Part shown: piece after piece, positions 1 through 47,716 of the stretch
Layout: each line of letters begins with the position of its first letter
Numbering within the stretch: position 1 is the first letter of the stretch
NCBI GenBank assembly: GCA_030803735.1
Contig: JAURUC010000001.1
Location: 3,861,501-3,925,500, forward strand
Origin: Actinopolyspora lacussalsi
Lineage (GTDB): Bacteria > Actinomycetota > Actinomycetes > Mycobacteriales > Pseudonocardiaceae
DNA: 64,000 nucleotides
Direction: 5' to 3'
Program-made: the position numbers and the translations under genes
The notes under the pieces: generated by a model
What the model saw: the letters and a program-made list of their open reading frames with translations, nothing else
Told to the model about the DNA's origin: nothing
The model's database searches: none

Positions 1-877
1 GAAGTCGTTGGTCGAACGTGGCGAGCTCTCCGCGGCGGAAGCGGCGGTCGCTCGCGTGCTCCCGCTGGCCGACGATCTGTGCGTGGAGGCCGATTCCGCG
101 GGACACACCGACGGCAGGGCTGCTTCCGCACTGTTCCCCACCATGGCGCGGTTGCGTGACTCGGCCGCCGAGCGGTACGGGGCCGGGGCACGGTTGGGGG
201 CGGCGGGAGGTCTGGGGACTCCCGAGGCGCTGGCCGCGGCGTTCGTGATGGGGGCCGATTTCGTCCTGACCGGATCGGTCAACCAGTGTACGCCGGAGGC
301 GGGTACCTCCGAGGAGGTCAAGGACATGCTCGCCTCGCTGGACGTGCAGGATACCACCTACGCGCCTGCCGGTGACATGTTCGAACTCGGCGCGCGGGTT
401 CAGGTGGCCCAGCGCGGAACGTTGTTCGGGCCTCGTGCCGATCGGCTCTACCGGCTCTATCGGCAGCACGGTTCGTTGGAGGAGCTCGACCGGCGAACCG
501 CGGAGACGATTCAGCGGAACTGGTTCAAGCTCTCCTTCGAGGAGGTCTGGGACCAGACCCGCGATTACCTCGCCGCGGTGCGCCCCCACGAACTCGAATC
601 CGCCGAGCGCGACCCGCACCACCGTATGGCGCGCGTTTTCCGCTGGTGGTTCGCGCGTACTAATCGCCTCGCCATAACCGGGGAGTCCGCCGAGCGCGTG
701 AACTTCCAAATCCACTGTGGGCAGGCCATGGGCGCGTTCAACAGGTTCGCGGCCGACGCGGGCATGGCGGACAGACGACAGCGCCACGTCGACGAAGTCG
801 CCGAGTTGTTGATGACCTCCGCGGCCGAGCTGCTCGATCGTCGGATCACCGTGTTGCGCCCGGCCGCGTCCGGTTGA
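1..877 (+). CDS. PfaD-type trans-acting enoyl reductase, 5'-truncated by window edge
   Basis: This is the C-terminal ~290 residues of a PfaD/2-nitropropane-dioxygenase-like FMN enoyl reductase, which acts in trans on trans-AT PKS modules to reduce enoyl-ACP double bonds. Visible family signatures are the VEADSAGHTD segment, GTPEALAAAFVMGADFVLTGSVNQ-type FMN/phosphate-binding region (from about position 205), and the APAGDMFELG motif (about 362). The reading frame is open to base 2 with no convincing start or ribosome site, so the gene begins outside the window. In leinamycin biosynthesis the ER is fused behind an acyltransferase (LnmG, AT-ER). As no AT is found in the window, the missing part may carry the trans-AT, but this is inference. 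It ends 43 nt before the next gene, in the same orientation as the cluster. Confidence 0.9.
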   Translation, partial: KSLVERGELSAAEAAVARVLPLADDLCVEADSAGHTDGRAASALFPTMARLRDSAAERYGAGARLGAAGGLGTPEALAAAFVMGADFVLTGSVNQCTPEAGTSEEVKDMLASLDVQDTTYAPAGDMFELGARVQVAQRGTLFGPRADRLYRLYRQHGSLEELDRRTAETIQRNWFKLSFEEVWDQTRDYLAAVRPHELESAERDPHHRMARVFRWWFARTNRLAITGESAERVNFQIHCGQAMGAFNRFAADAGMADRRQRHVDEVAELLMTSAAELLDRRITVLRPAASG

Positions 878-920: not shown

Positions 921-1907
921 ATGACTTCGAACACCGCATCGTCCTCCGAGTTCACGATTCCGGTGGCGAAATACCAGACCTCGCTCGACGAGGCGGACAT
1001 TCTGCACTCCGCGAACTGCGGCGTGATCGTGGAACGCGTCGGTCTGCTCAAGGCGGAGTACCGTTCCGAGGGGCGGGTCTTCGCACGTGAGCTCGCCGAG
1101 TACATCAACGTCAACTACGCGGGAACCGCCTCGGTCTTCGTCTACGAGGAGACCTTCGGAACCAAGGACGTCGTCCACTGGTTGATCCACGTCAAGTCGC
1201 TCGCCGAGTACGAGTACCTCGTCGGGATGGGCAGTGCGGACGAGGGATTCCGCGAAATCTTCACCCGGGAACGCATCCCCTCCGAGAAGGGCGGAGGTAC
1301 CTGGGACCGCATGTTCGTGGAGGGCACTCTCCGCGAGACCGTGCTGCTGCCCCAGTTCACCGGCATGTACGGGACCGAGGTCGACGGGGATGTCGCGGCC
1401 AAGCCCGAGGCGGTCGAGCCGGGTTCCCCCGCGATCGTTCCACCCGCCGCGCAACAGGTGCCCACCCAGGACGAGAACACCCTGCTGCACAGCGCCAACT
1501 GCGGAGTGCTCATCCACCGGGTCGGCCAGCTCACCTACGAGTTCCGTTCCGAAGCGCGCCAGTTCGCCAGGGAAGTCGCACGAACCATCAACACCAACCA
1601 GGCCGGCCGGGTGACGGTGCTGCTGTACGAGGAGGCGTTCGGCCGTTCCGACCGGCTGCACTGGCTCATCCACATGAAGTCGTTGTCCTCCTACTACTCG
1701 CTGATCGACATGCGGGCGTGGATGTCCGAGGAAGTGCGTGAGGTCTACACCCGCGAACGAATCGAACAGGACCGGGGAGGCGGTAACTGGAACCGCATGT
1801 TCCTCGACGCGAGCCTGGAGGATCTGGCTCTGACACCGCAGCACTGGGGCATGTACACGACCACGGCTCCGCAGCGGCTGACCAACGGAGCCGGAGCGCA
1901 TCGGTGA
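921..1907 (+). CDS. Tandem-duplicated protein of unknown function in a PKS cluster
   Basis: The protein has 328 aa and starts at ATG 921 behind a good AAGGAG site. It consists of two homologous ~130-residue halves (about residues 14-150 and 185-320). Both contain the order LHSANCG, E(Y/F)RSE-R-FARE, N-N-AG, (V/L)HWLIH-KSL, TRERI, GGG-W-RMF and GMY. The halves are joined by an acidic/Pro/Ala linker. From memory it resembles the DUF6039-type proteins found in actinobacterial PKS clusters, but I could not check this. The HWLIH-KSL stretch suggests a dimeric alpha/beta-barrel (ferredoxin-like) fold, so one chain could form an intramolecular dimer. No catalytic motif is recognisable. It sits between the trans-ER and the starter-unit A-PCP gene, so a role in the pathway is likely but unspecified. 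Confidence 0.75.
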   Translation: MTSNTASSSEFTIPVAKYQTSLDEADILHSANCGVIVERVGLLKAEYRSEGRVFARELAEYINVNYAGTASVFVYEETFGTKDVVHWLIHVKSLAEYEYLVGMGSADEGFREIFTRERIPSEKGGGTWDRMFVEGTLRETVLLPQFTGMYGTEVDGDVAAKPEAVEPGSPAIVPPAAQQVPTQDENTLLHSANCGVLIHRVGQLTYEFRSEARQFAREVARTINTNQAGRVTVLLYEEAFGRSDRLHWLIHMKSLSSYYSLIDMRAWMSEEVREVYTRERIEQDRGGGNWNRMFLDASLEDLALTPQHWGMYTTTAPQRLTNGAGAHR

Positions 1908-1959: not shown

Positions 1960-3774
1960 GTGGTGGGAACCGGATCTTCCGATTATCACGAGGCCGAGTT
2001 GACGCACGAGGCCTTCGAAGCGGTGGTGCGGCGGCAACCGGATCGCCTCGCCGTGACCGAGCCCGGTTCGGGGTCGCTGACCTATGCCGAACTGGACGCC
2101 AGGGCACGGCGACTCGCCGGTCGGCTGGTCGCCGATGGCATCGAGGCGGGCGAGCTGGTCGGGCTCTGCCTGCCGCGCGGTATCGACCTGGTCGTGGGAG
2201 TCGTGGCCGTTCTCAAGGCGGGGGGCGCTTATGTGCCGCTCGACCCGGAGCTCCCGGCCGCGCGTACGGAACTCCTGTTGACCGACACCCAGGTGCGAAC
2301 CGTCGTCACCGACGACGCCGGGGCCGAACTGCTGGCGGACCAACGGGTGTCGACGGTGCCGGTCGATCCCCCCGAACCAACCGGGGCGACCGACCCGCCG
2401 CGGCCCCGGGAGGACGACCCCGCTTACGTGATTCACACCTCGGGATCGACGGGAACTCCCAAGGGGGTGGTGGTCGAACACCGCAACGTGCTGCGGCTGT
2501 TCGAGACCACCGATCGGCTCCTCGATCTCGGTCCGGACGACGTCTGGACGATGTTCCACTCGGTCAGCTTCGACTTCTCCGTATGGGAGATCTGGGGTGC
2601 GCTGCTGCACGGCGCGCGCCTGGTCGTGGTTCCGAGGGACGTGACTCGCGTGCCGGAGCGCGTGCTCGCGTTGCTGCGGGAAGAGCGAGTGACCGTGCTC
2701 AGCCAGACGCCTTCCGCATTCCGTGCCCTCACGGCCGCGGCGGAGCGAGGTGGCGGGGACGACGAACTCGAACTCCGCTACGTCGTCTTCGGCGGGGAAC
2801 GTCTCGACCTCTCCGCGTTGCGCGGATGGCTCGAACGGCACGGCGACACCGAGCCGGAACTGATCAACATGTACGGGATAACGGAGACGACGGTTCACGT
2901 GACGTACCGCCGGATCCGTGTGGCGGATCTTCGTACGCCGGATCGGAGTCCGATCGGGGTGCCGTTGCCCGATCTGCGGGTCCGACTGGTCGACGGGGAA
3001 GGCCGGGAGGTTCCCACGGGCACGGCTGGTGAGATCCAAGTCAACGGCCCCGGAGTGGCACGGGGGTATCTCCGACGTCCGGAGCTCACCGCGGAGCGTT
3101 TCGTCACCGACGCGGAGGGCCGCTGGTACGCGTCGGGTGACAGGGCAGTACGTCGCCCGGACGGGGATCTGATCTATCTGGGGCGTGTCGACGACCAGAT
3201 CAAGGTGCGGGGGTACCGCATCGAACCGGGCGAGGTGGAGCACTGCCTGGAGGAGCAGGACGGGGTCGCCGCGGTGGTGGTGGCACCGCGCGATTACGAC
3301 GGGGACCGGCGTCTCGTGGCCTACGTGCTGCCTTCGGAGCACACGGCGGCGGAGCCGCTGTTCCGGAGGCTCTCCGGAGCCGCCCGCGAGCGGTTGCCGA
3401 CGCACATGCGTCCCGCCGTGTACCGCGTGATCACCGAGTTGCCGCTGACCGAACAGGGCAAGACGGATCGCGACGCGCTCGACTCCTTCGTCTCCCACGA
3501 GTCCGCCTCCGAGGCCCCGGATGAGGCCCCGGACGAGGGTGCGGACGAGTCCACCACCGAAACGACCGAACAGTTGGTGAGCCGCATCGTCGGCAAGGTG
3601 CTGGAGCGCCCGGACGTCGACAGTGACGACGATCTTTTCGCCGCGGGTGCCACCTCGCTCTCGTTGATGCGAATCATCGCGGAGCTCCGGCGTGAATCGG
3701 GAGCTCGGGTGGATATCGACGCCATCGGTGAACACGCCTCCATAAGACGGCTCGCGTTCGCGTTGTCCGCATGA
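1960..3774 (+). CDS. SyrB1-like A-PCP didomain, predicted threonine activation
   Basis: Stand-alone NRPS adenylation domain (about residues 15-500) followed by a carrier domain (about 535-604, phosphopantetheine Ser in GATSLSL). A-domain cores are visible: [35 protein letters not shown] and K in LTEQGKTDR. The binding-pocket code read by eye is D-F-W-S-V-G-M-V-H-K. This is one residue from the Thr code D-F-W-N-V-G-M-V-H-K of SyrB1, so threonine (or a close analogue) is the likely substrate. GTG 1960 is chosen because a GAGGGGGA site lies just upstream; an in-frame GTG at 1933 lacks one. The next two genes are the matching halogenase and aminoacyltransferase, as in syringomycin. The MbtH-like protein at 46395 probably assists this or the cysteine A domain. 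Confidence 0.92.
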
Positions 3775-3799
3775 TGAGAACCGGCATTGGAGTTTCGAC

Positions 3800-4759
3800 A
3801 TGACCACGGAAAACATCACCACCAACCGCGAATTCGCCCTCAGTGAGCAGGAACTCGCGCAGTTCCACGCACGTGGGTTCCTGGGGCCGTTCAAGGTGTA
3901 CGAGCCGGAGGAGATGGAGCGGATCTGGCGCAAGGAACGCATTCGGCTCATGGACCGGGAAAAAGCGGTTTACCAGGACGGTGCCGCCGAGTCCGGCAAC
4001 ACCAACATATCCAACTACGACCGCCATCTCGATTCGCGGGTACTGGCCGACCACGTGACCGAGCCCGGCATCGTGGACCGGGTTTCCAGTGTGCTCGGCC
4101 CGGACGTGCTGTGCTGGCGTTCCGAGTTCTTCCCCAAATACGCGGGCGACGAGGGTACCGACTGGCACCAGGCGGACACCTTCGCCAACGCCTCGGGCAA
4201 ACCGCAGATCCTGTGGCCGGAGGGGATCGAGGACTTCGGGGGGACCATCACCGTCTGGACGGCCTTCACCGAAGCCGACGAGGAAACCGGCTGCCTTCAG
4301 TTCATTCCCGGGACGCACCAGACGATGTACTACGACGAGACAAAGCGGATGCACTACGACCCGGACACCATCAACCGCTCGGTCAAGGACGGGGTGCGCC
4401 GCGGCTTCTTCGGATACGACTACCGGCAGCTGCAGAAGGACCCGGACTGGAAGCCGGACGAGGATCAAGCCGTCTCGCTCGTGATGCGTCCTGGTGAGGC
4501 GATCATGTTCTGGTCCACTCTCATGCACGCCTCACGACCGCATCTGGGCAATACCGACAACATGCGCCTGGGATTCGCCGGGCGTTACGTACCCACATCG
4601 GTGCGGGTCTATCCCGACACCGAGATTCTCGAGGAGTACGGCGGCAGCGTCAGCCTGGACCGGTACGGCTCGGTCCTCGTCAGTGGCCGGGACCGTTACG
4701 GGCACAACCCCCTGGCGACCGAGACGACCCGCGGACATCCCTTTCGGCACCGTCCCTGA
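3800..4759 (+). CDS. SyrB2-like non-heme Fe(II)/2-oxoglutarate halogenase
   Basis: 319 aa, colinear with SyrB2 over the full length. The family chlorinates the unactivated gamma-methyl of threonine while it is tethered to a carrier protein. The facial triad is altered in the halogenase-specific way: His123-Gln-Ala125 in GTDWHQAD puts Ala where hydroxylases have Asp/Glu, leaving room for chloride. The second iron His is His243 in STLMHAS. The 2-oxoglutarate-binding Arg is probably the one in [10 protein letters not shown]. The segment [10 protein letters not shown] after the HxA motif is also typical. It starts 25 nt after the A-PCP stop, so substrate and enzyme are co-expressed. 4-Chloro-threonyl-S-PCP is the expected product by homology; the exact position and number of chlorines cannot be read from sequence. 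Confidence 0.95.
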
Positions 4760-4823
4760 CCAACCCCCTCGTGCTTCGGGCGTCTCCGGACGGGACGTCC
4801 GGGGGGAAAGGAACTCGGTAATC

Positions 4824-5699
4824 ATGGCCGTCGGAGCACCAGAGGATTTCGGATCGGCGTGTGTCGCGGCCCCGGACGGGGCCCTGCTACCGGTACGCAC
4901 CGCCGGTGATCCGGACGATCCGGCCGTGCTGCTCGCCTCGGCGTGCGGTATGCCCGCAGGCCTGTGCGATCCCTGGGCCGGCCACCTGGCACGTGACCAT
5001 TACGTGCTCACCTGGGAGACCCGCGGAATGTTCGGCGACGAGCGAAACGGCCGGACGGTGTGTGCCGCCGCGGAGTTCGACCGGCTGGGCACCGGTGTCG
5101 AGCACCAGGTCGGGGACATGCTAGCCGTTCTGGACGGTTACGGGATACGTGACGCCCACGTGATGGGGCTGTGCGGCGGCGCTGTACTGGGGTTGCGAAT
5201 GGCAGCGGATCATCCGGACCGAGTGACCTCGTTGAGCTTGTGGCACGGCGACTACGAGCTCGGGGCGGATTGCCCGAAGACGAGCCATCAACGCAATCTC
5301 CAGGCGTTGATGGAGATGGCGGCGGAGAGCCGGGACAGTGCCGCGATGGTGCAGAGCACCGTTCGCGACACCGCCACCGACGAGCTGCCCCCCGAGATCG
5401 CGGAGATGGTGCGTTATCCCTACCGCGACTCCGAACTGCTCTACCGGTACTGCCGGTTGAACGGTGCCCTGATGGCGCACGACGTGCGTGGACTGCTGAG
5501 CCGGGTCGAGCAGCCCACGCTGGTGGTCACCAGCGAGGACGACCACACCGCGCACCCCGCGGGGTCCCACGCCGTGGCCTCGGGACTTCCCTCGGCCGAG
5601 CTGTACGTGGCTCCGCACGGAAACCACCTGTCGCTCTTCGCCGCGGGCGGGGAGCTGACGGAGATCGCCGGACGTTTTCTTCGGGAGAGAGGTGGGTGA
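4824..5699 (+). CDS. SyrC/CmaE-like aminoacyltransferase with Cys nucleophile (alpha/beta-hydrolase fold)
   Basis: 291 aa from ATG 4824, behind a GGGGAAAGGA site. An upstream in-frame extension overlaps the halogenase and is not needed. Alpha/beta-hydrolase fold in which the nucleophile elbow is G-L-C117-G-G rather than GxSxG. SyrC and CmaE use such a Cys to pick an aminoacyl group off one carrier protein and hand it to another. The acid and His of the triad are probably in TSEDDHT and PHGNHLS. In context it would move chloro-threonyl from the A-PCP to a carrier domain of the assembly line. The most obvious acceptor is the N-terminal PCP of the next megasynthase, which has no A domain of its own in front of it. 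An ordinary thioesterase is less likely because of the Cys. Confidence 0.88.
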   Translation: MAVGAPEDFGSACVAAPDGALLPVRTAGDPDDPAVLLASACGMPAGLCDPWAGHLARDHYVLTWETRGMFGDERNGRTVCAAAEFDRLGTGVEHQVGDMLAVLDGYGIRDAHVMGLCGGAVLGLRMAADHPDRVTSLSLWHGDYELGADCPKTSHQRNLQALMEMAAESRDSAAMVQSTVRDTATDELPPEIAEMVRYPYRDSELLYRYCRLNGALMAHDVRGLLSRVEQPTLVVTSEDDHTAHPAGSHAVASGLPSAELYVAPHGNHLSLFAAGGELTEIAGRFLRERGG

Positions 5700-5857
5700 C
5701 GAGTTTTTCCTGGAGCCGCGCCGGATGTTCCGCTGGAGTGGTGCTGACGCAATTCTTGAGCACGACGGGACGGCGCCCTGGAATGTCCACAATTTACTTC
5801 GTCTGGTTTGTACTGTAGTGGTGTCGCGCTCAGGGGACCTACCCAAACGGAGTGTAC
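5700..5857 (+). promoter_or_regulatory. Intergenic region upstream of the Crp/Fnr regulator
   Basis: 158 nt between the aminoacyltransferase and the regulator, the longest non-coding stretch in the left half of the cluster and locally less GC-rich (about 5775-5820). It is a plausible promoter site for the regulator and the downstream PKS genes. I do not see a convincing Crp-type dyad or a clear -35/-10 pair. GGAG at 5849-5852 sets the start at ATG 5858. Confidence 0.35.
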
Positions 5858-6523
5858 ATGTCGGATAAGCGGTCAGAATGCGGGTGGTACAACCGCCTGC
5901 TCGAAGCTGCCGGCTCGGGAATACGAGAGGATGTTCTGGAGAGGGGCGAGAACATCTACACCTGTGGTAAGTCCGATCCGGTCGTCTACCTGGTTTCCCG
6001 CGGTCAGGTGAAGAGTTCGATGCTCTCCCAGTCCGGCAAGCGCTGCCTGTTGGCGATACACACCGCGGGGGATCTGTTCGGCGAGAGCTGTCTGTTGAAC
6101 GCGGAACGCTCCGAGGAGGCGACCGCCATGACCGAGGTGGTGCTCAAGCGCATTCCGAGTGACCGCTTCCTCGCCGCGCTCGCGTCGAACGGAGCTCTGG
6201 AGGAGTTCGTCACCTATCTGGTGGGACGTATGGCTGAGCAGCAGCAGGTGATCACCAATCTGGTTACCGTGGACAGCGAGAAACGCCTCGCGGCCACGCT
6301 GCTCAGGCTGGCGAGGAAGCTCGGGCGGCGTGACACCGACCGGCTGCTGATAGAGCAGTACATCACGCAGGAAGAACTGTCCGGAATGGTCGGAACGACC
6401 AGGTCCAGGGTGGGTTATTTCCTGAAACGCTTCCGTGCGGACGGTTTTATACGTACGTTGCCGGGAGCTTTTATCGAAGTGAACGAAGCGCGTCTCAACA
6501 AGTATCTACAGCTTTCTGTCTGA
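5858..6523 (+). CDS. Crp/Fnr-family transcriptional regulator (LnmO-like position and type)
   Basis: 221 aa. The N-terminal cyclic-nucleotide-binding-type beta-roll (about residues 20-115, including VYLVSRGQVK, GDLFGE and LLNAERSEEATAMTE) is followed by a dimerisation helix. The C-terminal winged helix-turn-helix has ITQEELSGMVGTTRSRVGYFLKRF as its recognition region. No Cys cluster for an Fe-S centre is evident, so the effector is unknown. The leinamycin cluster is controlled by a Crp/Fnr-type activator, LnmO. This gene sits directly upstream of the megasynthase genes in the same direction, so it is the best candidate for the pathway-specific activator. ATG 5858 is preferred over GTG 5852 because of ribosome-site spacing. 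Confidence 0.9.
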   Translation: MSDKRSECGWYNRLLEAAGSGIREDVLERGENIYTCGKSDPVVYLVSRGQVKSSMLSQSGKRCLLAIHTAGDLFGESCLLNAERSEEATAMTEVVLKRIPSDRFLAALASNGALEEFVTYLVGRMAEQQQVITNLVTVDSEKRLAATLLRLARKLGRRDTDRLLIEQYITQEELSGMVGTTRSRVGYFLKRFRADGFIRTLPGAFIEVNEARLNKYLQLSV

Positions 6524-6635
6524 ATCCGGGAAAACCGTTCTCGTGCGGGAGTTCGCTCGTCCGCGTTCATCCTGTCGGGATATCACCGGGGGCAGTGGAT
6601 CCGCTCTTTCGGAGAATTTGTGCGGGGTTGTTGTC

Positions 6636-9600
6636 GTGACATCGACGAATGATGCCGGGTGGATGGCGGCCCGTGCGGACATCGGGGACACGGAATCGGT
6701 GGTACGTGCCGTGCTGGCCGGAGTGCTTCCGGAGGACGCCGAACCGTTGTGGGACACGCCGTTGCGGGAGCAGGGAATGGACTCCCTGGGCGCCACTCGC
6801 CTGTGGTTCGAGCTGAAGCGTCACTTCGGCGTCGAACTGCCGCCGGACCGGCTGGGAGAGTGTTCCGGGGTACGTGAACTCGTGGAGCTGGTCGCCTCGG
6901 AGCTCGGTTCCGGGGCTCGTAACGAATCCGAGGACACTGCCGCGGCGATGGCGGCAGGCGGGATCACCGACGAGTCGGACGTGGCGCTGCCGTTGACCCC
7001 GATCCAACAGTCCTACCTGGTGGCGAAGGAAGCCGGATTCGGGCCCGATTCCCTCGGATGTCACCTATACCGGGAATTCACGGTGGAAAACCTCGACCCG
7101 CGACGGCTGCGTTCGGCGTGGGACCGGGTGGTGCGTCGTCACGAGGCGCTGCGTACCGCGATAGGTGCGGACGGGCGACAGCGAGTACTGGACGAGCCGT
7201 TTCCCTGGGACATGCCGGTCCACGACATGTCGGGCAGCGACGAGCGAAGCGTTCACCGCAGGCTGCGTGAAGTGCGGCACTCGTTGTCCCACCGTGGTTT
7301 CCCCGTCGGGGACGGGCCACTGTTCGCCATCGAGGTCACCCATGTCCCAGACGGGAGCAGTACGGTGCACTTCGCCCTCGACGGTCTCTTGACCGATGGT
7401 GTCGGGCTGGGCTTGTTGTTCGAGGACTGGTGGAACAACTACCTCGGCGGGGCCGAGGAAACCGGGGCCGGCGAAACCCCGCGATCGGAGGGGGAAGCTC
7501 CCGGGCTGGGCGAGTGTCTGGACGCGTTGCGGGCCGAGCGATCGGGGCAACGCTACCGCGAGGATCTGGACTACTGGACCGAGCGCCTCGCCGAGCTTCC
7601 CCCGGGACCCGGACTGACGCGGGTGTCCGAGTCCCAGGAACCACCCGCGGACGGCCCCTGTCCGCTACGCACTCCGATGAGCGGTTCGCTCGACGCCTCG
7701 GACTGGGCGGCTCTGTGCCGTGCCGCCCAGCGGGCAGGCGCTTCCCCGACCACCTACGTGTTGGCGCTGTTCGTCGAGGCGCTGTACCGCAACGGGGGGC
7801 GGTCGTACTGCTCGTTGGTGCTCACCACGAGTTTCCGTGGCATGCTCCCCCACGGTTCCGAGCGAACGGTGGGGCCGTTCACCTCGACCACGGTCCTCGC
7901 GGTCGACGCGTCGATCGGCCGCTCCCGGGCGGAAACCGCTCGTGACATTCACCGCGAACTCTGGCAGGACCTCGCCCACTCCCGGGTGAGTGGGGTGGAA
8001 GCCCTGCGTGTCGCCAGAAGACAGTCACCGCCTGTGGTCTTCACCTCCTTGCTCGACTCCGGGGCACGGGAGCCGGGGAGCGGTGGCTTCGCCGATTCGG
8101 TGAGCTATGCGGTGAGTCAGACCACCGGCGTTTCGCTCGACCACCAGATGTGGGAGCAGGACGGAGCGCTGCACTACCGCTGGGACGTGGTGCCCTCGGA
8201 CTTCGAACCGGGAGTCGTCGAGAACCTCTTCGCGCTGTTCGGGAACATACTGCTCGACGCCGCGAGCGAGCAGCGTGAGGGGAGCGTCGAGCACGCGCTC
8301 AATCCGTTGCAGCAGGCCTACTACGTGGCACGTTGCACCGACATCGGTGAGGCCGCCGGTTGGAACGGGTGCCAGGTTTGTCACTCGTTTCACGTGTCCG
8401 AACCGGATCCGGAGCGGCTCGAATCGGCGTGGCTCCGGCTGGCCGCGGCCCACCGGATGTTGCGCGGCACTGTCGGCTCCGAGGGAGTGGTACGCACGAG
8501 CTCGGAGCGGCCGACCCGCCGCCACATTCCCGTGCTCGACACCCGTGGTCTCGCCGACCCCGCCGAGACGGTACAGCTCATGCGGGAGGAGATGGTCGCA
8601 CGGGCGTACCCGCTGGATCGCGGTCCGCACTCCGATCTGCGGCTGACGATCGAGGCCGATGGTTCCGGCACGGTGCACTGCGCGCTCGATCTGACGCTGT
8701 TGGACGGCCCGAGCATCCATTTCCTGCTGCGCGAGCTCGTGCGACTGTACGAGGATCCCACGGCGGCTCCGCGCGCGCACCCGTCCGGGGAGACCGGGAC
8801 GACTTCCGAGAACCCGCCGCCGGACGCCGCGACTCGCCGGTCCTACTGGCAACAGCGGGTAGCCGAGTTGCCTCCCGGGCCGCGGGTGGATCCCCCCGCC
8901 GCGGGCACTTCCCGACGGAGGGTCAGGTACGACGGCCTGCTGACCGGCTGGCGGGCGCTCCGGGACCGTGCTGCGCAAGCGGGACTCCACGGCGACGACG
9001 TGCTGCTCACGGTGTTCGCCGAGGTTCTCGCGGAGCGGTTCGACGCGCCGTTCACGCTGCCCGTGGTGCGGTGGAACCCCCGGTCCGCTCCGATGCGGCC
9101 GGGTGAGTTCACTGAATTGAGCTGGGTGGCCCGGAGCGCGGACGAATCGGTTCCCGCCGAACGAGCACGGCGATACCGACTGACCGTCGACGAGGACGTT
9201 CGGCACGCCGGATCCGACGGTCTGGCAGGTCTCGGTGAACTGCGTCGTCGCACGATGAAGGAGCGGGGCGGGTTCGAACTGCCGGTCGTCTACACCGGAA
9301 TCCTGCGGCTCGGCGACTCCCCGTTGCCTTCCGGGGTGCGCCCCGGCCACTGGCTCACCTGCACCCCCGGCGTCTCGCTGGACTGCATCGCCATCGAGGA
9401 AGGCGACGAGCTGCGGTTCCACTGGGACGTCGTTCTGGAGGACTTCGCGGTGGAAACCTCCGGCGGAACCGATGACACGCCCTCGGTCGCGGAGTTGTTC
9501 GAACGCTACCGGAACCGGTTGCGCGAACTGGCCGCGGGCGAGACCGAGTGGTGGGAGGGAACCCGCCGAACCGCCGCGATGACGCGCGAAGCGGGGTGCG

Positions 9601-12600
9601 CGGACGTGGGCGGGCCGGAGCACGTCCACCGGCAGGACATCGGGCGGGATATCGGATCGGCCGCCGAGCAGCGGCGGTTGTTGCTCGCGGGCGAGGGTGC
9701 CGTCGTCCCCTTCTCCGACTCGGCGCCGGTGCACACCTTGTTCGAACAGCACGCGCGACAGCGTCCCGATGCCACTGCGGTGCGCTGGTCCGGCGGTGTC
9801 ATGACCTACGGGGAGCTGAACCGGCGTGCCAACGGGCTCGCCCGCCGGCTCCGCGAACTCGGGGTGGCGGCCGAGACGCCGGTGGGCATTCACCTCGCTC
9901 GTGGCCCGGAGATGGTGGTGGCCGTTTTCGGCGTGCTCAAGGCGGGCGGTTTCTACGTTCCGATGGATCTTTCGCTGCCCGTCGAGCGCATCGAGCATCT
10001 CGTCGAGGATACCCGGCTGAAGTACGTGCTCACCGACGCCGAGCGTTCCGATCCGGCACTCCCGCCGGGATTGGTGCCGTTGGACGTCACCCACGTACAG
10101 CCGTCCGAGGCGGGTGATCCCGAGCCCGTCGCCGATGTGGACAACACGGCCTACGTCATCTTCACTTCCGGCAGCAGCGGACGTCCGAAGGGTGTGGCCG
10201 TCACCCACCGGCCGCTGCTCAACCTCGTCGACTGGTGTGACCGAAACTGGTGGTTCGGCCCCGGTGACATGGGGCTGTGCGTCACTTCGCTCGGATTCGA
10301 CCTCTCGGTGTTCGACATACTCGGGTTGCTCGGTAGCGGTGCCGCGCTCTACGTCACCGACGACGAGCAGCGCAGGGACCCCGAGCTGCTGCTCGAACTG
10401 CTGTTGCGGGAGCCCATCACCTTCTGGAACTCGGCTCCCACCACGCTCAATCAATTGGCACCGCTGTTGCCGGACGCACGCGGTTCCGAGGGGACGTCCT
10501 CGTTGCGGCTGGTTTTCCTCAGCGGCGACTACACTCCGCTACCGCTGCCGGACGAGATCCGTGCCGCTTTTCCCGGCTCGGTAGTGGTCAGCCTCGGCGG
10601 TGCGACCGAGGCGACCGTCTGGTCCAACTTCTACGTCGTCGGTGAGGTGGACCCCGAATGGCGGAGCATCCCGTACGGCAAGCCCATGGACAACGCGGTC
10701 TACCGCGTGCTCGACGAAGAGCTGTCGCCCTGCCGTGCGGAGGTGGCGGGCGATCTCTACATCGGTGGTGAATGTCTGAGCACGGGCTATCACAACCGCC
10801 CCGCGCTGACGGCGGAACGCTTCGTTCCCGATCCGTACGGACCACCCGGCAGCAGGCTCTACCGTACCGGGGACCGTGCCTGCTGGATGTCCACAGGGGA
10901 CTTGCGTTTCCTGGGGCGGGCCGACAGCCAGTTCAAGATTCGCGGCTTTCGGGTCGAACCGGGCGAGATCGAACACCGGTTGCGGGAGCACGACGCGGTC
11001 AAGGACGCGGTGGTGGTTCCCGGCGGTGCCGCTTCCTCCGACGAGAGACTGGTCGCGTTCCTGCGTGCCGATGTCGCCGACCCGCCGGGAATCTCTGGAA
11101 TCAGATCGCACTGCGCCGCGACACTGCCCGATTACATGGTGCCCAACCAGGTCGTGTACCTGGACTCCTATCCGGCGACCGGGAACGGCAAGCTCGATCG
11201 TGACCGCCTGCTGGAGATGGCCGAGGGACGGAGCGGACAACAGGACGAAACGCTCGCCAGCGCAGGGGACGCCAGCGCAGGGGACGCCAGCGCAGGGGAC
11301 GCCAGCGCAGGGGACGCCAGCGCAGGGGACGCCAGCGCAGGGGATTCGCCACCGGTGGAGCTGGTGGGCGAGATCGCGGAGACGTTCGCCGCCTATCTCG
11401 ACGACACGGCGATCCGCCCGGACGAGGATCTCTGGGACATGGGCGCGACCTCGTTCACCATGGTCCGTGTCTCCGGCGAGCTGCGCAGTCGTCACGGTGT
11501 TCGGGTTCCGGTGGCGGTGCTGTTGGAGAACCCGACCGTCAACGGAATAGCGAGATGGCTGGCACCGAGACTCGCGGAATCACCCGGAACCGAGCAAGGT
11601 GAGACCACTGCCGGAACGGATGACTCCTCCCGGACATCGTCGCCGCCCGCCCCCGAGGAGGACGGGCCCGAACCCGTGGATTTCTTCTCGCGGGAGTCCA
11701 GGGACGCGTTCAAGTCTGGGGAGTGGAACCGGCGACGTCCGCTTCCGGGCGAGGAATCCGTGCCGCTGTCACGGTACGGTTTCGCGGCGCAGCAGTTCAC
11801 CTGGCGTTCCAGCCACCGTGAGTTCGGCGAACGCTGCCTGCCGCTCGAATCCTTCACACGGTTGCTGGAGTTGCTGGCCCACGGAAGTGGTGCCGAGGGC
11901 GGGCGCAGACTCCACCCCTCCGCGGGAGACACCTACTCGGTGCAGGTTTACCTGCATGTGCGGCCGGAGGCCGTCGAGGGCCTCTCCGGTGGCCTCTACC
12001 ACTACGAGCCGTACGAGCACGCGTTGTGGCGTATCAGCCGGGAACAACCGCTCACCCGCAACGAGCACTTCGTGCACAACCGGCCGCTGTTCGACGCGGC
12101 CGGATTCGGCATCTACCTCGTGGGGCGCGAGGACGGCATAGCGCCGATCTACGGTGCCGACGCCGAGCGGCTGCTCATGCTGGAAGCGGGTTACATGGGC
12201 CAGCTGCTCATGTCCGGGCAAGCCCGCTCCGGGATCGGGCTCTGTCCGATCGGCACGCTCTCCTTCGAGCCGCTGCGGTCGGCCTTCGGTCTGAAGAGCT
12301 CCGATGTCTATCTGCACGCGATGCTCGGTGGCCCCGCCGAGCACCCCTCGACGGCTTCGGACGGTTCGTTGCCGAACTACACCGCTCCCGCGGCGGAGAA
12401 GAGCGGACAGCTCGCCGAGCCGAGTGCCGCCCGGGAAACTCGGGGGGAACGTGCCGACGAGGTGGCGGTCGTCGGCGTGGCGGGCCGCTATCCCGGGGCC
12501 GAGAATCCCGAACAGTTGTGGCGGAACCTCCTGGAATCCCGTGCTGCCATCCGTGACGTTCCTTCCGGGCGTCGCGCCACCGTGCTCGGGGAGGACGCCG

Positions 12601-15600
12601 GAACCGGCGGGCCGCCGGGCGGCTGGCTGTCGAATGTGGACACCTTCGACGGGCTGCTGTTCCGCGTGTCCCCGGCGGAGGCGAGGACTCTCGACCCGCA
12701 GCTGCGGTTGTTGCTCGAAACCTGCTGGGAGTGTTTGGAACACGCGGGCCACACCCCCACCTCGCTGCACGAAGAGGCCGGCAGGGTGGGGGTCTTCACG
12801 GCGGGGATGTGGCAGGACCATCAACTGACGGGTGCCGCCGCCTTCGCCGGGGGCGGGAACGCGGACATCTCGGCGACAGCCTCCGAGACGGCCAACAGGA
12901 TCTCCGCGGCCTTCGACTTCCGGGGCCCCAGCGTGGCTGTGGACACTTCCTGCTCCGCCGCGTTGACCGCACTGCATTTGGCCTGCGGGAGCCTGCGCGA
13001 CGGGGAATGTGACGCCGCGCTGGTGGCCGCGGTCAACCTGTTCACCCATCCCTACCACCTGGGGGTGCTGCGTCGGCTCGGTTTCACGGCCGAAGTTCGT
13101 TCACCACGTGCCTACGACGCCGAGGCCGCGGGCTGGACCCCGGGCGAGGGGGCCGGAGCCGTACTGCTTCGTCGCTCCGCCGAAGCGCTTCGCGACGGCG
13201 ACACGCGGTTGGGCGTGATCGAGGGGACAGCGCTCGGGCACACGGGGAGCCGGAGTCGATTCGCCACGCCGTCCGCCGCCGCGTTCGAGGAGTCCCTGCG
13301 GGCAGCGCTGCACAACGCGGGACGCGAGCCGTTCGAGATCGACTACATGGAGTGCTCGGCATCCGGGGCGGCGTTCTCCGACGCGGCCGAGGTCGAGGCG
13401 GTCTCGCGAGTGTTCGGCGCCGCCGGTTCGGAACTGCCCGCGGGCACCGTCAAGCCCCTGATCGGCCATCTCGAAGCCGCTTCGGGGATCTCGCAGTTGA
13501 CCAAGGTGCTGTTCCAGATGCGGGACCGTCGGTTGCCACCCACCCCGCTCGCCGAACATCGCAGCGCGCTGCCACCTTGGGAGGAATCCCCGCTGCGGTT
13601 CGCCGATCGATCTCTTGCCTGGAACTCCGCCGTGCCCGACGGCACGGTACGCGCGGTGGTCAACGCGGTCGGTGCCACCGGCTCCCACGGGCACGTGGTG
13701 CTTCGTTCCGTCCCGGACGAGCCGCACGCTCCACGCCCCGCGAAAACCGGGTCCTCGGCAGGCACGGTCTTCGTGCTCTCGGCCCAGGACGAGGAGCGGC
13801 TGGCGGAGTACGCCCGTGTGACGCACCGGGACCTCGCTCGTCGTGTCGAGACCGGCACTGCCCCCGCACTGCGCGATGCCGCACACACCTCGCGGCGGGG
13901 GAGGATCGCGCTGCGCCATCGGCTCGCCGTGGTCTGCGAGGACTTCGACACCCTGTTGGAGGGCTTGGACGCCCACGCGTCCGGCCGTCCGCATCCCCGT
14001 GTCGTCACCGGAACGGCGACCCACGGGCAGGAGGGTGAGCAGGCGAACGAAGGGCTCGCCCCCGGCCCGGTCGAACCGGCGCACCTCGCCCGGGCCTGGG
14101 TGGCGGGAGCCGAAGTGGACTGGGGGGCGCTCGCCGACGGCGATTCCGCGAGACGGATCGTGCTGCCGACCTATCCGTTCGCGTCGAAACGGCTCCCCGA
14201 CGAGCCGGAATCCGCTCCGACCACCGACGAGGTGTCCACGGTCGTGGCCGATGCCGTGCGTTATCTGCGGAGTCTGTTCGCCGAGATCGCCGAACTGGAC
14301 GAGCGGAGTGTCGACGTACACGCTCCGCTCGAAGACTACGGGCTCAACTCGTGGCTGGTCACGAGGCTGAATGAGCGACTCGTCCGGGACTACGGTTCCG
14401 GGGTCGCCCGCACGCTGTTCTTCGAGTGCCGCACGCTGCACGGTGTGGCCACCGCCTTGGCCGCCCTGGGGGACGCTCCCCGTCGTGCGGATACCGCCAC
14501 GGCCCCGTCGCGCGTGCTCACACCGTCCTCGTCCGACTCGGGGGAGTCGGACTCGGGGTCGTTCGTTCCCTCCGACACCTCGACCGAGCCGGTGGCGATC
14601 GTCGGGGTGGCGGGACGTTATCCGTGGGCCGATTCCCCGGAGGAGTTCTGGCGCAACCTCTGCTCGGGCGAGGACTGCGTCACGTCGTTCCCCGCCGAGC
14701 GACATCGGGAGGGATGGCCCTCGCCCGAGACCATGCGCGGTGGTTTCCTTCGCGACGTCGCCGCCTTCGACGCCGCGGTGTTCGGCATCGTGCCGCGTGA
14801 CGCTGAGCTCATGGACCCACAGGAGCGGTTGTTCCTCGAAGTCACCAGAGAGGCGTTGGAGGACGCCTGTTGCCCGCCCGACCTACTGCACGAGTGGTAC
14901 TCCGGCCGGGTCGGGGTCTTCGTCGGATCGATGTACAACGAGTACCCCTACTTCGGCATCGAGCACGCGTGGCGAACCGGATCACCGATGCCCACCGGAT
15001 CCGCCCTGGCAGGTGTGGCGAACCGGGTCTCGCACACCTGGAACCTGCTCGGCCCGAGCATGACCGTCGACACCATGTGCTCGGCCTCGCTGACGGCGTT
15101 GCACCTCGCGGTGGAGAGCCTGCGACGCGGTGAGTGCGCTGCCGCGATCACCGGCGGGGTCAATCTCTCGTTGCATCCGAACAAGTTCGTGCAGCAGTCG
15201 AGGCTCGGAATGACGTCCAGCGATGGACGCTGCCACGGTTTCGGCGCGGGTGGCGACGGTTTCGTGCCGGGTGAGGGAGTCGGCGCGCTGCTGCTCAAAC
15301 CCCTGCGAACCGCCGTCGAGGACGGGGATCGGGTTCACGCCGTCATCAGGGGCACCGCGGTCAACCACGGCGGCAGAACCAACGGCTACATGGTGCCCGA
15401 CCCCGCCGCACAGGCGAGTGTGGTGCGCTCGGCGTTGCTCCGGGCCGGAGTGGAACCGGAGACCATCGGCTACATCGAGGCCCACGGCACCGGCACACCG
15501 TTGGGGGACCCGGTCGAGATCGAAGGGCTGCGCGCCGTGTTCGGCGATCGGGACGGCGATCTCGGAGAGTGCCCCATCGGATCGGTCAAGTCCAACATCG

Positions 15601-18600
15601 GTCACCTGGAGGCGGCGGCAGGTGTGGCCGGGCTGACCAAGGCGTTGCTTCAACTGCGGCACGGCCGGTTGGTTCCGAGCCTGCACGCCGAAACGCTCAA
15701 CCCCAACGTGAACTGGAGCGAGGTGCCGTTCCGGGTGCAGCGGGAGAACGCACCCTGGCCTGCCCGGCACGACGGTGTCCCCAGGAGAGCCGGGGTCAGT
15801 TCCTTCGGTGCCGGGGGCGCCAACGCCCACGTCGTCCTGGAGGAGTACCCACGCCGACTCCGGGACGCCGGTTCCGCCGCGACGGAGGACGAGGACCGGG
15901 ACCGGGCGGTGCTGCTTTCCGCTCGTACGCCGGAAGCCCTGCGCAGGCTGGCCGGTCGTCTCGCCGAGTGGTCGTGCGGGGCCGGCCACGCACGACTGGC
16001 GGACGTGGCCCACACGCTCCGGGTCGGCCGCGAACCCATGCGGGAACGGCTGGGGATCGTGGCCTCGGACCTCTCGGACCTGCGTGCCTCGCTGGAACGC
16101 TTCCGAAGCGGTGGGCGCTCGGACCCCGACACCGGGATATTCACCGGACGAACCGCGGCCAGAGGTGAGTCCGTCCCGCCGGAACTCGTGGGAAGGGACT
16201 TCGACCGCGCCACGGCATCCGAGATCGCCGCTCACTGGTCCGAGGGCGGTCTTGTGGACCGAACCAGGAACCGGAACGCCGACGGTCCGCGACTGCTCTC
16301 GTTGCCGACCTATCCCTACGAGTCGGAACACCACTGGTTCCCGGAAGCCGGTTCCACGGCGACCGATCGGAACGCGCCCGGCGTCGATCCGGTGAACGCC
16401 CCAGGGGAAGCGTTCACCGGTTCCGGGACGACCGAAGTCCCGCTGTACCGCAGGCACTGGGAGCCCGCTCCGGTCGAGTCCTCCGAAGCGCTCCCCGCCG
16501 CACGACGGGTGTTGTGTCTGTACCGCGACCAGGTGCGTCCCGTGGCCGAGACGCTCGCGGAGCTGTTCGGGCGAGTGGGAACGACCGTGGATCTCGCGCG
16601 GGAGGACACCGTTGACCCCGCCGGGCCGCCCGGGGACTACGACGGTGTCGTCGATCTGTGCGACCTGCGCCGTCCCCACCGGGACCGGTACTGGACGAAC
16701 AGGCTCACGGTGTTGCGACGGTTGTTGGACGTTCCGCACCGCCCGTTGCGGCGAGTGATGCAGGTGACCAGCGGTCTGTTCGGGGCGGACGGACCACCGC
16801 CCAATCCGGCGGGGGCGCGGCTGGCCGGGTTCGTGCGGATGCTGGGGGCCGAGTACGACGGCGTGCGATCCGAGGTGTTCGACACCGACGCTGACGTCGA
16901 CGACCCGTCGACCGTGGCCGGAGACATCCTGCGCGAGTGGTCCGTGGCAGGCGGTGAGAGCGAGGTCCGCGTTCGCGACGGCGAGCGTTCGACGCCCGCG
17001 CTACGGCGGTGGTTCCCCGCTTCCGAGCCCGTCGAGCTGGACCCAACCCGTTCCTACCTGGTGAGCGGTGGGACGAGCGGTATCGGTGCCGCGGTGGCCG
17101 AGCACCTGGTGCGCAGGGGAGCCAGGAGTGTCGCGCTGCTCGGACGTCGTCCGTTACCGCCCCGTGAACGTTGGGACGATCCCGGTCTCGACTCCGGAAC
17201 CGCCGACACCGTGAACGGGATTCTCGCTCTGGAGAGGTCCGGCGCGACCGTTCTGGTCCACACCGGATCGGTAACCGACCGGCGCTCCGTCGCGGACTTC
17301 CTCGGCAGGGTGCGGTCGGAGTCCGGTTCGATCGCGGGCGTCGTGCACTGTGCGGGGGTCTCCTCCAGGGGGAAGCCCGCACTGGTGCACAAGGACCTCG
17401 TCGACATCGACGAGGTCGCCGAGCCCAAGGTCGAGGGTTTCGAGGTCCTGGCCGAACTGTGCGCCGATGATCGCCCGGACTTCTTCGTCGGATTCTCCTC
17501 GCTCTCGGCGGTGCTTCCCCGGCTGGCGGTGGGGATGGCCGACTACGCCGCCGCCAACACCGCGTTGGACCTGCTCGCTTCCGTGCGGGCTCGTTCGGGT
17601 GAACCGTGGCATCGCACGATCGACTGGCCGGTGTGGCTCGAAAGTGGAAGTGGGGCGGAATACGCCGGAGCATGTGAGGCACTCGGCATCGGCTCCGTGA
17701 CCGATTCCGAGGGGATGTCCGTACTGGACGCTGTCCTGGCCGCTGACTCCCCGGGGAGCGTGGTGGTCCGGCCCGAGGTCCGGAAGGTTTCCGAGAGGTC
17801 GTGCGGGCGGGACGACTCCGCGGGGTCGGTGCTTGGTTCGGTGGGAACGCGGGACGCGGACAACCGGCACGTCTCGTCCGCGCGGGATCGCCCGAGCACG
17901 GTTTTCCACTCCCCGGCCGAGGAGTCCGGGCCACGCTTACCCGGTTGGCTGGCCGAGGTGCTCTCCCGGCGAACCGGGGTTCCGAAGGATCGGCTGGAGC
18001 CCGACGAGACCTTTTCCGACATGGGGGTCGAGTCGGTGATGCTGGGCGAGCTCACCTCCGACATCGAAGGCGAACTGGGTGTCCCGGTGGATCCCGCGTT
18101 GCTGTTCGACCACCCCACTCCGGGCGAACTCGCCGCGAAGCTGCGGGAACACGTCGTCGCTTCGGAACGCTCCGAGGACCCGGCGGACGACGGTGCCGTA
18201 CCGCATGAGAACGGTGCCGTACCGCATTCGGCCGCCACGGCGGGCGCGGCGCCCGATCCCGCGGCATCGGGCGAGAGCTCGGACAAGGTCGCGATCATCG
18301 GAATGTCCTGCCGGTTCCCCGGGGCGCCGGACCTCGACACCTTCTGGACCAATCTGCTCGCCTCCCGATGCGCCGTGACGGAGGTTCCCGCCACTCGCTG
18401 GGACGTTTCCACGTTGTACGACCCGTTCCGGCGGAACGGTGGATCGATGAGCAAATGGGGAGGTTTCGTCGAGGACATCGAGTTCTTCGACGCGGAACGG
18501 TTCGGACTCTCCGATGAATCGGCGATGTCGCTCGATCCGGCCATACGGATGTGGTTGGAGGGAACCGAACACTGCCTCGCGGACGCGGGGTACACCGCTG

Positions 18601-43073: not shown

Positions 43074-43358
43074 ATGCCGAAATCAACAGCCGACGCCGGA
43101 GAACAATCCGGAACACCGGACCACGAGGAGTGGGCCGAGGTTCGACGCGTCATCGGTGAGATTCTTCCCGGAGTCACCGAGTCCGAGATGACCGCAGATC
43201 GTCATCTCGAACAGCTCGGGGCTGATTCCGTCGATCGTGTCGAGATCGTGTTGGCCCTCAAGGACGGGTTCGGCGTGCGCGAACCCCTGAAATCGTTCGA
43301 GAACGTGCCGGATCTGCAATCTCTCGTGCGATTCCTGCACACATCGCGTACGAGGTGA
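43074..43358 (+). CDS. Discrete donor ACP 1 (LnmL-like)
   Basis: 94 aa, ATG 43074 behind GAGGAG and three bases after the LnmK-like stop. Single carrier domain with phosphopantetheine Ser in LGADSVDRVEI. Position between the LnmK-like enzyme and the HMG synthase makes it the donor ACP loaded by the former and used by the latter. Its stop overlaps the HMG synthase start (GTGA). Confidence 0.9.
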   Translation: MPKSTADAGEQSGTPDHEEWAEVRRVIGEILPGVTESEMTADRHLEQLGADSVDRVEIVLALKDGFGVREPLKSFENVPDLQSLVRFLHTSRTR

Positions 43359-44620: not shown

Positions 44621-44710
44621 TACCGCGGGGCGGTGCGCCCGAGCCGGGAGATCCCCTCCGGGCCACCACCCGACCCGTCGAACGACCGAACCCGTCCCCG
44701 GAGGAGAACG

Positions 44711-46764: not shown

Positions 46765-46812
46765 GCCTTACGCGGGGCTTCCCGCATGGCCCTCGAACAA
46801 AGGAGTGAGAAC

Positions 46813-47661: not shown

Positions 47662-47716
47662 ACGTGTGAGGCGACCGCCCGTCACACGCGGATCGCGCGC
47701 TCGGGTGAAAAGAAGC

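What the first reader, a model, noticed from the sequence alone, without database searches (positions are those of the whole stretch)
1960..5699. Complete SyrB1/SyrB2/SyrC-type chlorothreonine trio feeding a leinamycin-family assembly line
Three adjacent genes give (i) an A-PCP with a Thr-type pocket (D-F-W-S-V-G-M-V-H-K), (ii) a halogenase with the diagnostic HxA motif (His123-Gln-Ala125, His243), and (iii) an alpha/beta-hydrolase transferase with a Cys nucleophile (Cys117). The first megasynthase begins with a PCP that has no A domain, a natural acceptor. The characterised leinamycin and guangnanmycin lines, as far as I recall, start from an unhalogenated amino acid, so a chlorinated Thr starter next to a thiazole would be new for the family. 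A chloromethyl/hydroxy pair could also form an epoxide or ring.
Basis: partly seen in the sequence, partly recalled or inferred. Interest (0 to 1): 0.88.

Follow-up and report, generated by a model that had tools for sequence, protein, structure and literature searches.

The report
Chlorothreonine starter genes, largimycin type
Three neighbouring genes most likely load, chlorinate and hand over threonine to start a leinamycin-type antibiotic assembly line; the same gene trio is already known from the largimycin pathway, and relatives of its halogenase were found in most genomes of this family that we searched, so it is a good prediction but not a new kind of system.

Summary
1960-3774 is an A-PCP with code DFWSVGMVH, 3800-4759 a full-length SyrB2/CytC3-type chlorinating enzyme (His123-Gln-Ala125, His243), 4824-5699 an alpha/beta-hydrolase with Cys117 (GLCGG), and the first megasynthase starts with a PCP that has no A domain. 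The cluster is leinamycin-type (ACP-ACP-DUF-SH-TE, LnmK, LnmX). 'New for the family' fails: in largimycin biosynthesis LrgS/LrgH/LrgY have the same assigned roles, and inactivation of lrgH shows cryptic chlorination of threonine en route to an epoxide (PMC9396626). Halogenase homologues occur in 25 of 32 leinamycin-type genomes searched, on the LnmK contig in 20. Differences here: Cys-type second A domain (thiazole expected; largimycin has oxazole), no P450 in or near the cluster, and module 8 split after its KS (1 of 27 clusters). The cluster lies in a ~64.5-kb stretch absent from a conspecific genome and two congeners. Beyond the trio only C9-branch genes come close to tracking the halogenase, so no universally linked dehalogenase was found; a VOC protein at 47780-48145(-) is the local candidate. 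New member of a known kind.

The parts
2..877 (+). trans-acyltransferase (LnmG/LrgG type), 5' end outside the window
   Evidence: FabD_helical_ins 5.5e-27; homologue in 26 of 27 other clusters
921..1907 (+). DUF6039 protein; a second copy (39% identical) lies 3.6-4.5 kb upstream of window base 1
   Evidence: PF19505 2.4e-119; 39% to the upstream copy
1960..3774 (+). LrgS/SyrB1-type A-PCP, predicted to activate L-Thr (code DFWSVGMVH)
3800..4759 (+). LrgH/SyrB2-type Fe(II)/2OG chlorinating enzyme, H123-x-A125, H243, R256
4824..5699 (+). LrgY/SyrC-type aminoacyl transferase, alpha/beta-hydrolase fold, Cys117 in GLCGG
5852..6523 (+). Crp/Fnr-type regulator
   Evidence: cNMP_binding 6.3e-14, HTH_Crp_2 2.2e-11
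6543..19763 (+). LrgI/LnmI-type NRPS-PKS: PCP-Cy-A(DLFNFSLVW)-PCP-Ox-KS-ACP-KS-KR-ACP-KS
   Evidence: Cy read from DGLLTDGVG, not the canonical DxxxxDxxS
19760..37276 (+). LrgJ/LnmJ-type PKS, first part: DH-ACP-KR-KS-ECH2-ACP-KS-DH-KR-MT-ACP-KS-KR-ACP-KS
37273..42087 (+). LrgJ/LnmJ-type PKS, second part: linker-ACP-ACP-DUF-SH-TE; ATGA overlap with the first part and AGGAGG at 37257-37262
42084..43070 (+). LnmK-type acyltransferase/decarboxylase
   Evidence: TIGR04098 7.4e-78; LnmK 4hzo 3.6e-87
43074..43358 (+). discrete ACP (LnmL/LrgL type)
   Evidence: PP-binding 4e-9
43355..44620 (+). HMG-CoA synthase homologue (LnmM/LrgM1 type)
   Evidence: HMG_CoA_synt_C 9.7e-19
44633..44953 (+). second discrete ACP (LrgA type)
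   Evidence: PP-binding 2.5e-5
44821..46272 (+). discrete KS (LrgD type), C9-branch cassette; true start probably later
   Evidence: Ketoacyl-synt_C 1.4e-29; at 42% identity or more in 20 of 21 halogenase-bearing clusters and 0 of 7 others
46786..47661 (+). type II thioesterase (LrgN type)
   Evidence: PF00975 5.5e-43
47780..48145 (-). VOC/Glyoxalase_6 protein, possible LrgB counterpart, candidate dehalogenase/epoxide-former (unproven)
   Evidence: PF18029 1.1e-27
48201..50198 (-). acyl-AMP ligase-like protein with C-terminal DUF3224
50232..50912 (+). isochorismatase-family hydrolase, no tblastn hit (1e-5) in 27 other clusters
   Evidence: PF00857 1.9e-33
50950..52074 (+). AlkZ-like (HTH_42) protein; possible self-resistance, catalytic motif not canonical
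   Evidence: PF06224 3.3e-44; AlkZ 5uuj 7.9e-7
52137..53615 (+). MFS exporter
   Evidence: MFS_1 2e-52
53467..54477 (+). SAM methyltransferase (start uncertain; overlaps the exporter ORF)
   Evidence: Methyltransf_11 1.3e-20
54534..55316 (-). LnmX-type PIG-L deacetylase family protein
   Evidence: LnmX 5bmo 1.5e-79
55374..56747 (-). FAD-dependent oxidoreductase (possible LrgO counterpart; true start likely ATG at residue 65)
   Evidence: FAD_binding_3 1.8e-22

Best explanation
The trio is the discrete starter-loading unit of a leinamycin-type trans-AT NRPS-PKS. The A-PCP (1960-3774) activates L-threonine and holds it as a thioester; the non-haem iron/2-oxoglutarate enzyme (3800-4759) chlorinates C4 of the tethered threonine; the Cys-nucleophile alpha/beta-hydrolase (4824-5699) moves 4-chloro-threonyl to the orphan N-terminal PCP of the first megasynthase, where a Cy-A-PCP-Ox module (Cys-type code) builds a chlorothreonyl-thiazole start. 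Shown: gene identity, motifs, order, co-occurrence. Inferred: substrate, chlorination, transfer, thiazole. By analogy with largimycins the chlorine is probably an activating group lost before release (epoxide or diol), but whether it is lost here is open.
For: Full-length match to SyrB2 and CytC3 with HxA iron site; code DFWSVGMVH against the recalled Thr code DFWNIGMVH; Cys nucleophile in GLCGG; orphan PCP. HQA in 21 of 21 halogenase-bearing clusters; LrgY relative at 47-57% identity in all 20 other such clusters, its Cys-Gly-Gly kept in 21 of 21; LrgS-type Thr code in 18 of 21. Characterised precedent: LrgS/LrgH/LrgY; the lrgH mutants make non-chlorinated or unmodified-Thr analogues.
Against: No biochemistry on these proteins. 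Three halogenase-bearing clusters (G006, G008, G010) have halogenase and transferase but no Thr-type A-PCP in the stretch fetched, and one halogenase-free cluster (G024) has a Thr-type A domain 59 kb from LnmK, so the trio is not strictly indivisible. Four of 7 halogenase-free clusters hold a distant (26-27%) transferase-like hit that also has a Cys at the nucleophile site, so such a transferase need not mean a chlorinated cargo. No SyrC or LrgY sequence was compared. Congruence of the halogenase with family genes is modest (Spearman 0.29 with SH, 0.49 with LnmK).
Confidence: 0.88

Rival explanations
1. The chlorine is kept in the end product: a truly chlorinated leinamycin-family compound, because this cluster has no enzyme that removes it.
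For: Beyond the trio only C9-branch genes (a KS, and less strictly a second HMG synthase) come close to tracking the halogenase across 28 clusters, so no universally linked dehalogenase was found; the cluster also lacks the three P450s of the largimycin route.
Against: In the only characterised case the chlorine is lost before release; a VOC protein like the one floated as a candidate in PMC9396626 is present at 47780-48145(-). The screen used ORFs of 100-1600 aa, merged paralogues and missed that VOC at first, so it is not exhaustive.
Confidence: 0.25
2. The iron enzyme hydroxylates, or acts on an amino acid other than threonine.
For: Ectoine hydroxylase (TIGR02408) is a weak second family match (31.9 bits, far below its cut-off); three related clusters pair a related halogenase with a different A domain (DIWQSTA).
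Against: Ala125 replaces the carboxylate ligand of hydroxylases; TIGR01762 at twice its cut-off; neighbouring A domain has a Thr-type code.
Confidence: 0.06
3. The cluster is present but does not make a product in this strain (silent or non-functional after horizontal transfer).
For: Halogenase absent from the one conspecific genome and the eight congeners searched; PKS module 8 is split between two genes.
Against: The genes read as open ORFs; the split has a Shine-Dalgarno-like sequence and an ATGA overlap, as in translationally coupled genes; the largimycin cluster too is silent under standard conditions yet functional.
Confidence: 0.1

Closest known systems
Largimycin cluster lrg of Streptomyces argillaceus (BGC0001853): LrgS, LrgH, LrgY, LrgI, LrgJ
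   Same: Discrete Thr loading protein, SyrB2-type halogenase and transferase feeding the first NRPS-PKS; two HMG-synthase genes, discrete KS, ECH, two discrete ACPs, in-line ECH2, tandem ACPs and SH; an FAD enzyme and a VOC protein are also present in the window
   Different: No P450 here (three in lrg); second A-domain code is DLFNFSLVW as in 19 of 27 other clusters, while lrg makes an oxazole; module 8 split after KS; AlkZ-like and isochorismatase-family genes in the insertion. Compared through the papers' descriptions only; the lrg sequence could not be compared
Leinamycin, guangnanmycin and weishanmycin clusters
   Same: Terminal KS-ACP-ACP-DUF-SH-TE order, LnmK and LnmX homologues (solved leinamycin proteins)
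SyrB1/SyrB2/SyrC of syringomycin biosynthesis
   Same: Same three activities; SyrB2 aligned over residues 9-315 of 319
   Different: There (recalled) 4-Cl-Thr ends up in a lipopeptide; here it starts a polyketide line. SyrB1 and SyrC sequences not compared

Membership tests
SyrB2-type chlorinating enzymes | HxA/G in place of HxD/E at the iron site | tested here: met
   H123-Q124-A125 and H243; HQA in 21 of 21 halogenase-bearing clusters
SyrB2-type chlorinating enzymes | Family profile above curated cut-off | tested here: met
   TIGR01762 461.8 bits, cut-off 226.3
SyrB2-type chlorinating enzymes | Chlorinates an aminoacyl-S-PCP | not testable with these tools
   needs enzyme assay
LrgS/SyrB1-LrgH/SyrB2-LrgY/SyrC loading unit | Discrete A-PCP with Thr-type code | tested here: met
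   DFWSVGMVH, PP-binding
LrgS/SyrB1-LrgH/SyrB2-LrgY/SyrC loading unit | Cys-nucleophile alpha/beta-hydrolase transferase | tested here: inconclusive
   GLCGG Cys117 and co-occurrence with the halogenase; not compared with SyrC or LrgY themselves, activity untested
Leinamycin-type clusters | Terminal ACP-ACP-DUF-SH-TE | tested here: met
   SH aligns to 9cen 3e-70
[quoted passage not shown]
   split after KS at 37273-37276; domain order kept
Leinamycin-type clusters | LnmK/LnmL/LnmM genes after the last PKS | tested here: met
Leinamycin-type clusters | At least one P450 gene (said of every lnm-type cluster in PMC13200230; not used as a criterion) | tested here: not met
   No P450 nearer than about 700 kb; none in 6 of 28 clusters
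Largimycin-type subgroup | LrgS/LrgH/LrgY trio | tested here: met
   by motif and order
Largimycin-type subgroup | Three P450s LrgC1-C3 | tested here: not met
Largimycin-type subgroup | LrgO (FAD) and LrgB (VOC) | tested here: inconclusive
   FAD and VOC genes present but lrg sequences not at hand

The most novel reading that the evidence does not exclude
The VOC protein at 47780-48145(-) is the still unidentified enzyme that expels the chlorine of the 4-chloro-threonyl starter and closes the C18/C19 epoxide, in the way CmaC (recalled: a Zn-dependent VOC enzyme) closes a cyclopropane after the SyrB2-type halogenase CmaB. Clusters that have the halogenase but no VOC would then keep the chlorine. 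In this P450-free line the product would carry a thiazole, a C9 exomethylene and two alkylating ends (starter epoxide or chlorohydrin plus the sulfur-derived episulfonium), which would fit an AlkZ-like repair gene in the same insertion.
Probability: 0.13. Interest if true: 0.7.

Novelty: new member of a known kind. Interest (0 to 1): 0.33.

Why it matters
It corrects a novelty claim: chlorinated threonine starters are established in this family (largimycins), and the halogenase is the majority state among the leinamycin-type genomes searched here (25 of 32). The comparison narrows an open question in print, which enzyme removes the chlorine: among the gene families screened no universally halogenase-linked candidate appeared, and VOC-bearing against VOC-free clusters give a direct test. 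The insertion and its P450-free content show which scaffold might be made without P450 tailoring.

Tried and rejected
A dedicated dehalogenase by co-occurrence: ORFs of 100-1600 aa in 28 clusters (21 with, 7 without halogenase) were clustered. Beyond the trio, the discrete KS came closest (20 of 21 against 0 of 7 at 42% identity or more; the profile search gave 19 of 21 against 1 of 7), then the second HMG synthase (19 of 21 against 1 of 7 at 53% or more; the ORF screen had merged it with LnmM). Both belong to the C9 branch, so neither was taken as a dehalogenase. The screen has blind spots: it first kept a spurious antisense ORF (47666-48283) and missed the VOC gene opposite it.

VOC as a halogenase partner: at 47% identity or more in 8 of 21 halogenase-bearing and 0 of 7 other clusters, Fisher p 0.075, so not significant; a 34% hit in G012 was left out of the count. 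Genome-wide VOC paralogues reach 64% identity outside the cluster (G016), so identity is no proof of orthology. VOC and FAD genes do co-occur (8 with both, 0 VOC alone, 1 FAD alone, 19 neither; nominal p 2.9e-6, inflated by relatedness). The VOC count took only the fetched stretches: one search also shows a VOC about 11 kb from LnmK in G004 (not in the table) and one about 35 kb from it in G010 (just outside its stretch).

Frameshift in the PKS at 37.2 kb: suspected from overlapping frames, rejected because AGGAGG lies 10 nt before an ATGA start-stop overlap. A sequencing error cannot be excluded by computation.

FAD protein as a second halogenase: its best PDB matches are flavin halogenases, but it has no WxWxIP motif (motif recalled); treated as an oxidoreductase.

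AlkZ-like gene as proof of a DNA-alkylating product: the region where AZL proteins have (Q/H)-aliphatic-Q reads Q-D-N by eye (motif classes from passages of PMC9040887), so glycosylase activity is doubtful. Rfam: no match at gathering scores in the window. No tRNA in the 20 kb upstream or 10 kb downstream of the window. Neither structure prediction nor fold search was run.
Full report
1. What is there. 1960-3774 is AMP-binding, AMP-binding_C and PP-binding. Its nine specificity positions read DFWSVGMVH; the recalled Thr code is DFWNIGMVH. 3800-4759 matches SyrB2 (2fct, 3.2e-138) and CytC3 (3gja, 9.4e-131) over nearly its whole length, passes TIGR01762 'chlorinating enzyme' at twice the cut-off, and has H123-Q124-A125, H243 and R256. 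The third ORF opens at 4494, but the likely start is ATG 4824, which puts the GLCGG cysteine at 117.

2. Surroundings. The first megasynthase (6543-19763) begins with a PCP (4.9e-14; Ser81), then a condensation domain read as heterocyclisation type (DGLLTDGVG; the canonical motif, recalled, is DxxxxDxxS), an A domain, a PCP and a nitroreductase-type Ox domain. The next two genes complete the line: DH-ACP-KR-KS-ECH2-ACP-KS-DH-KR-MT-ACP-KS-KR-ACP-KS, then ACP-ACP-DUF-SH-TE. LnmK (4hzo, 3.6e-87; TIGR04098), LnmX (5bmo, 1.5e-79) and the SH domain (9cen, a 'polyketide synthase protein', 3e-70) identify a leinamycin-type cluster. A second HMG-CoA synthase, an ECH and a second DUF6039 gene lie upstream of the window in L002, and a discrete KS and a second discrete ACP are in the window; together this is the C9-branch set described for largimycin.

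3. Is it new? No. In PMC9396626 (I read section 2, section 7 and search passages) LrgS, LrgH and LrgY are the loading module of LrgI and would activate, chlorinate and transfer L-threonine; mutants indicate that LrgH chlorinates and that chlorination is needed for the C18/C19 epoxide. PMC13200230 (parts 1-3 of 5 read, plus passages) places dehalogenation before release from the PKS and, in what I read, names no enzyme for it. Two further papers looked up by DOI (meant as the 2017 family survey and the first largimycin paper; DOIs recalled) are not held. Full-text searches: leinamycin with SyrB2 gave one paper, PMC9396626; leinamycin with chlorothreonine none; leinamycin with halogenase ten, of which I opened only the two largimycin papers; largimycin fourteen, of which I opened four.

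4. How common is it? A LnmK alignment (31 sequences) was scanned over one genome per species: 92 relatives, best 80 kept, 78 loci. Of these 34 also had the SH domain; the other 44 were not followed. I gave 33 of the 34 to the genome search (L021 and L022 are two contigs of one species; L021 was left out); 32 were held and searched (L022 was not). A halogenase at E<=1e-60 was found in 25 of 32 genomes, on the same contig as LnmK and 14-43 kb away in 20, on other contigs in 5. I fetched these 20 and the 7 genomes without it and compared them with the window: 28 clusters, 21 with and 7 without halogenase. The five split cases were dropped.

5. Co-occurrence (identity to the window protein; thresholds). 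HQA in 21 of 21 halogenases. LrgY relative at 47-57% in all 20 others with halogenase, with Cys-Gly-Gly at the nucleophile site in 21 of 21; in 4 of 7 without halogenase a 26-27% hit, which also has a Cys there. LrgS-type Thr code in 18 of 21; G006, G008 and G010 have none in the stretch, and carry another A domain (DIWQSTA) about 5 kb upstream of the halogenase. One halogenase-free genome, G024, has a Thr-type A domain 59 kb from LnmK. The discrete KS is in 20 of 21 against 0 of 7, the second HMG synthase in 19 of 21 against 1 of 7. Halogenase distances correlate with those of LrgY (Spearman 0.38), LnmK (0.49), LnmM (0.28) and SH (0.29), permutation p 0.002-0.04: partly shared history, not strict.

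6. What differs here. (a) Second A domain: DLFNFSLVW, the same code as in 19 of 27 other clusters; G006, G008 and G010 have DLFNYSLVW, G001 and G002 DLFNAAMVW, G005 DLFNCALVW, G003 gave a partial AALVW and G013 no proper match. Against the recalled Cys code DLYNLSLIW this predicts cysteine, hence thiazole; largimycins have an oxazole, although the LrgI code too is said to look more like Cys, so the code is not decisive. G001-G003 also have three P450 places each and may be largimycin-like, but I could not test that. Chlorothreonyl-thiazole is a prediction that this cluster shares with 13 of the 20 other halogenase-bearing clusters (both codes). (b) P450: none in the cluster; the nearest in the genome is more than 700 kb away. 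A tblastn with 31 P450 proteins from the clusters found none in the window, G006, G008, G010, G026 and G030, 6 of 28. PMC13200230 says every lnm-type cluster known has at least one. (c) Module 8 is cut after its KS: the next gene starts at ATG 37273, overlapping the stop TGA, with AGGAGG 10 nt before it. In 26 other clusters with a readable SH ORF that ORF reaches at least 8.9 kb upstream of SH, here 2.8 kb. PMC7618002 (passages) describes one domain order for module 8 throughout the family.

7. A strain-specific insertion. The genome (5.03 Mb, one contig) belongs to the family that holds Saccharothrix and Actinokineospora (same coordinates), i.e. Pseudonocardiaceae by recall; the genus was not identified. 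Of 249 genomes of the family searched, 19, its own included, have a halogenase at E<=1e-100; the one conspecific genome (G129) and the eight congeners listed have none. In G129 the left flank ends 6.6 kb upstream of window base 1 and the right flank starts at window 57872; between them lie only about 1.05 kb in G129, 0.61 kb in G070 and 0.13 kb in G104 (only these three were compared). So about 64.5 kb, containing the whole cluster, is extra in this strain. Its content bounds the gene set: no P450 inside.

8. The missing dehalogenase. In the co-occurrence screen nothing beyond the trio and the C9-branch genes tracked the halogenase. The VOC protein at 47780-48145(-) (Glyoxalase_6, 1.1e-27) was found only when a spurious antisense ORF was recognised. 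PMC9396626 mentions LrgB, a VOC protein, among proteins of unknown function in this context. VOC genes lie in 8 of 21 halogenase-bearing clusters and 0 of 7 others (p 0.075), each with the FAD gene. Background VOC paralogues reach 64% identity. This is a lead, not a result.

9. Other papers: PMC8479088 (passages) and PMC9040887 (passages) were used for the SH domain, GnmP and AlkZ-like classes.

10. Verdict. Observation confirmed, function well supported, novelty claim refuted by largimycin. A new member of a known kind with some unusual accompaniments.

Noticed in passing
window 37257-37276: LnmJ-type PKS is split after the last KS with AGGAGG and ATGA overlap; the only such case among 27 clusters with a readable SH ORF
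   Followed up: yes
6.6 kb upstream of window base 1 to window 57872: About 64.5 kb, the whole cluster, is absent from a conspecific genome and two congeners, whose flanks are about 0.13-1.05 kb apart
   Followed up: yes
window 47780-48145 (-): VOC/Glyoxalase_6 gene hidden under a longer spurious antisense ORF (47666-48283 +); possible LrgB counterpart
   Followed up: partly
window 50950-52074: AlkZ-like protein inside the insertion, no tblastn hit in the 27 other clusters; catalytic region reads QDN, so activity doubtful
   Followed up: partly
window 921-1907 and L002:15486-16409: Two DUF6039 paralogues (39% identical), with an internal repeat; a DUF6039 match in 26 of 27 other clusters, with or without halogenase; function unknown
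   Followed up: partly
G006, G008, G010 (L130-L139, L145-L149): P450-free relatives with halogenase and transferase just upstream of LnmJ but a different A domain (DIWQSTA) nearby instead of the Thr A-PCP; the halogenase may act on another residue
   Followed up: partly
G016, G020, G024, G032 clusters: Halogenase-free clusters with a distant (26-27%) relative of the transferase that keeps a Cys at the nucleophile site (GWCTGP, CWCSGP, AWCTGP); perhaps a transferase for an unchlorinated starter
   Followed up: no
window 60073-60238 and 62129-62293: Inverted copies of an intergenic repeat around a Na+/H+ antiporter gene; similar pieces occur in dozens of places in the conspecific and congeneric genomes
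   Followed up: no
window 53467-54477: SAM methyltransferase with 42-43% relatives in G014, G017, G018; could be a hydropersulfide methyltransferase like GnmP, not tested
   Followed up: no
L002:14400-15401: 333-aa ORF on the minus strand without family; a 69% similar piece of 469 bp makes up nearly half of the 1-kb empty site in G129
   Followed up: no
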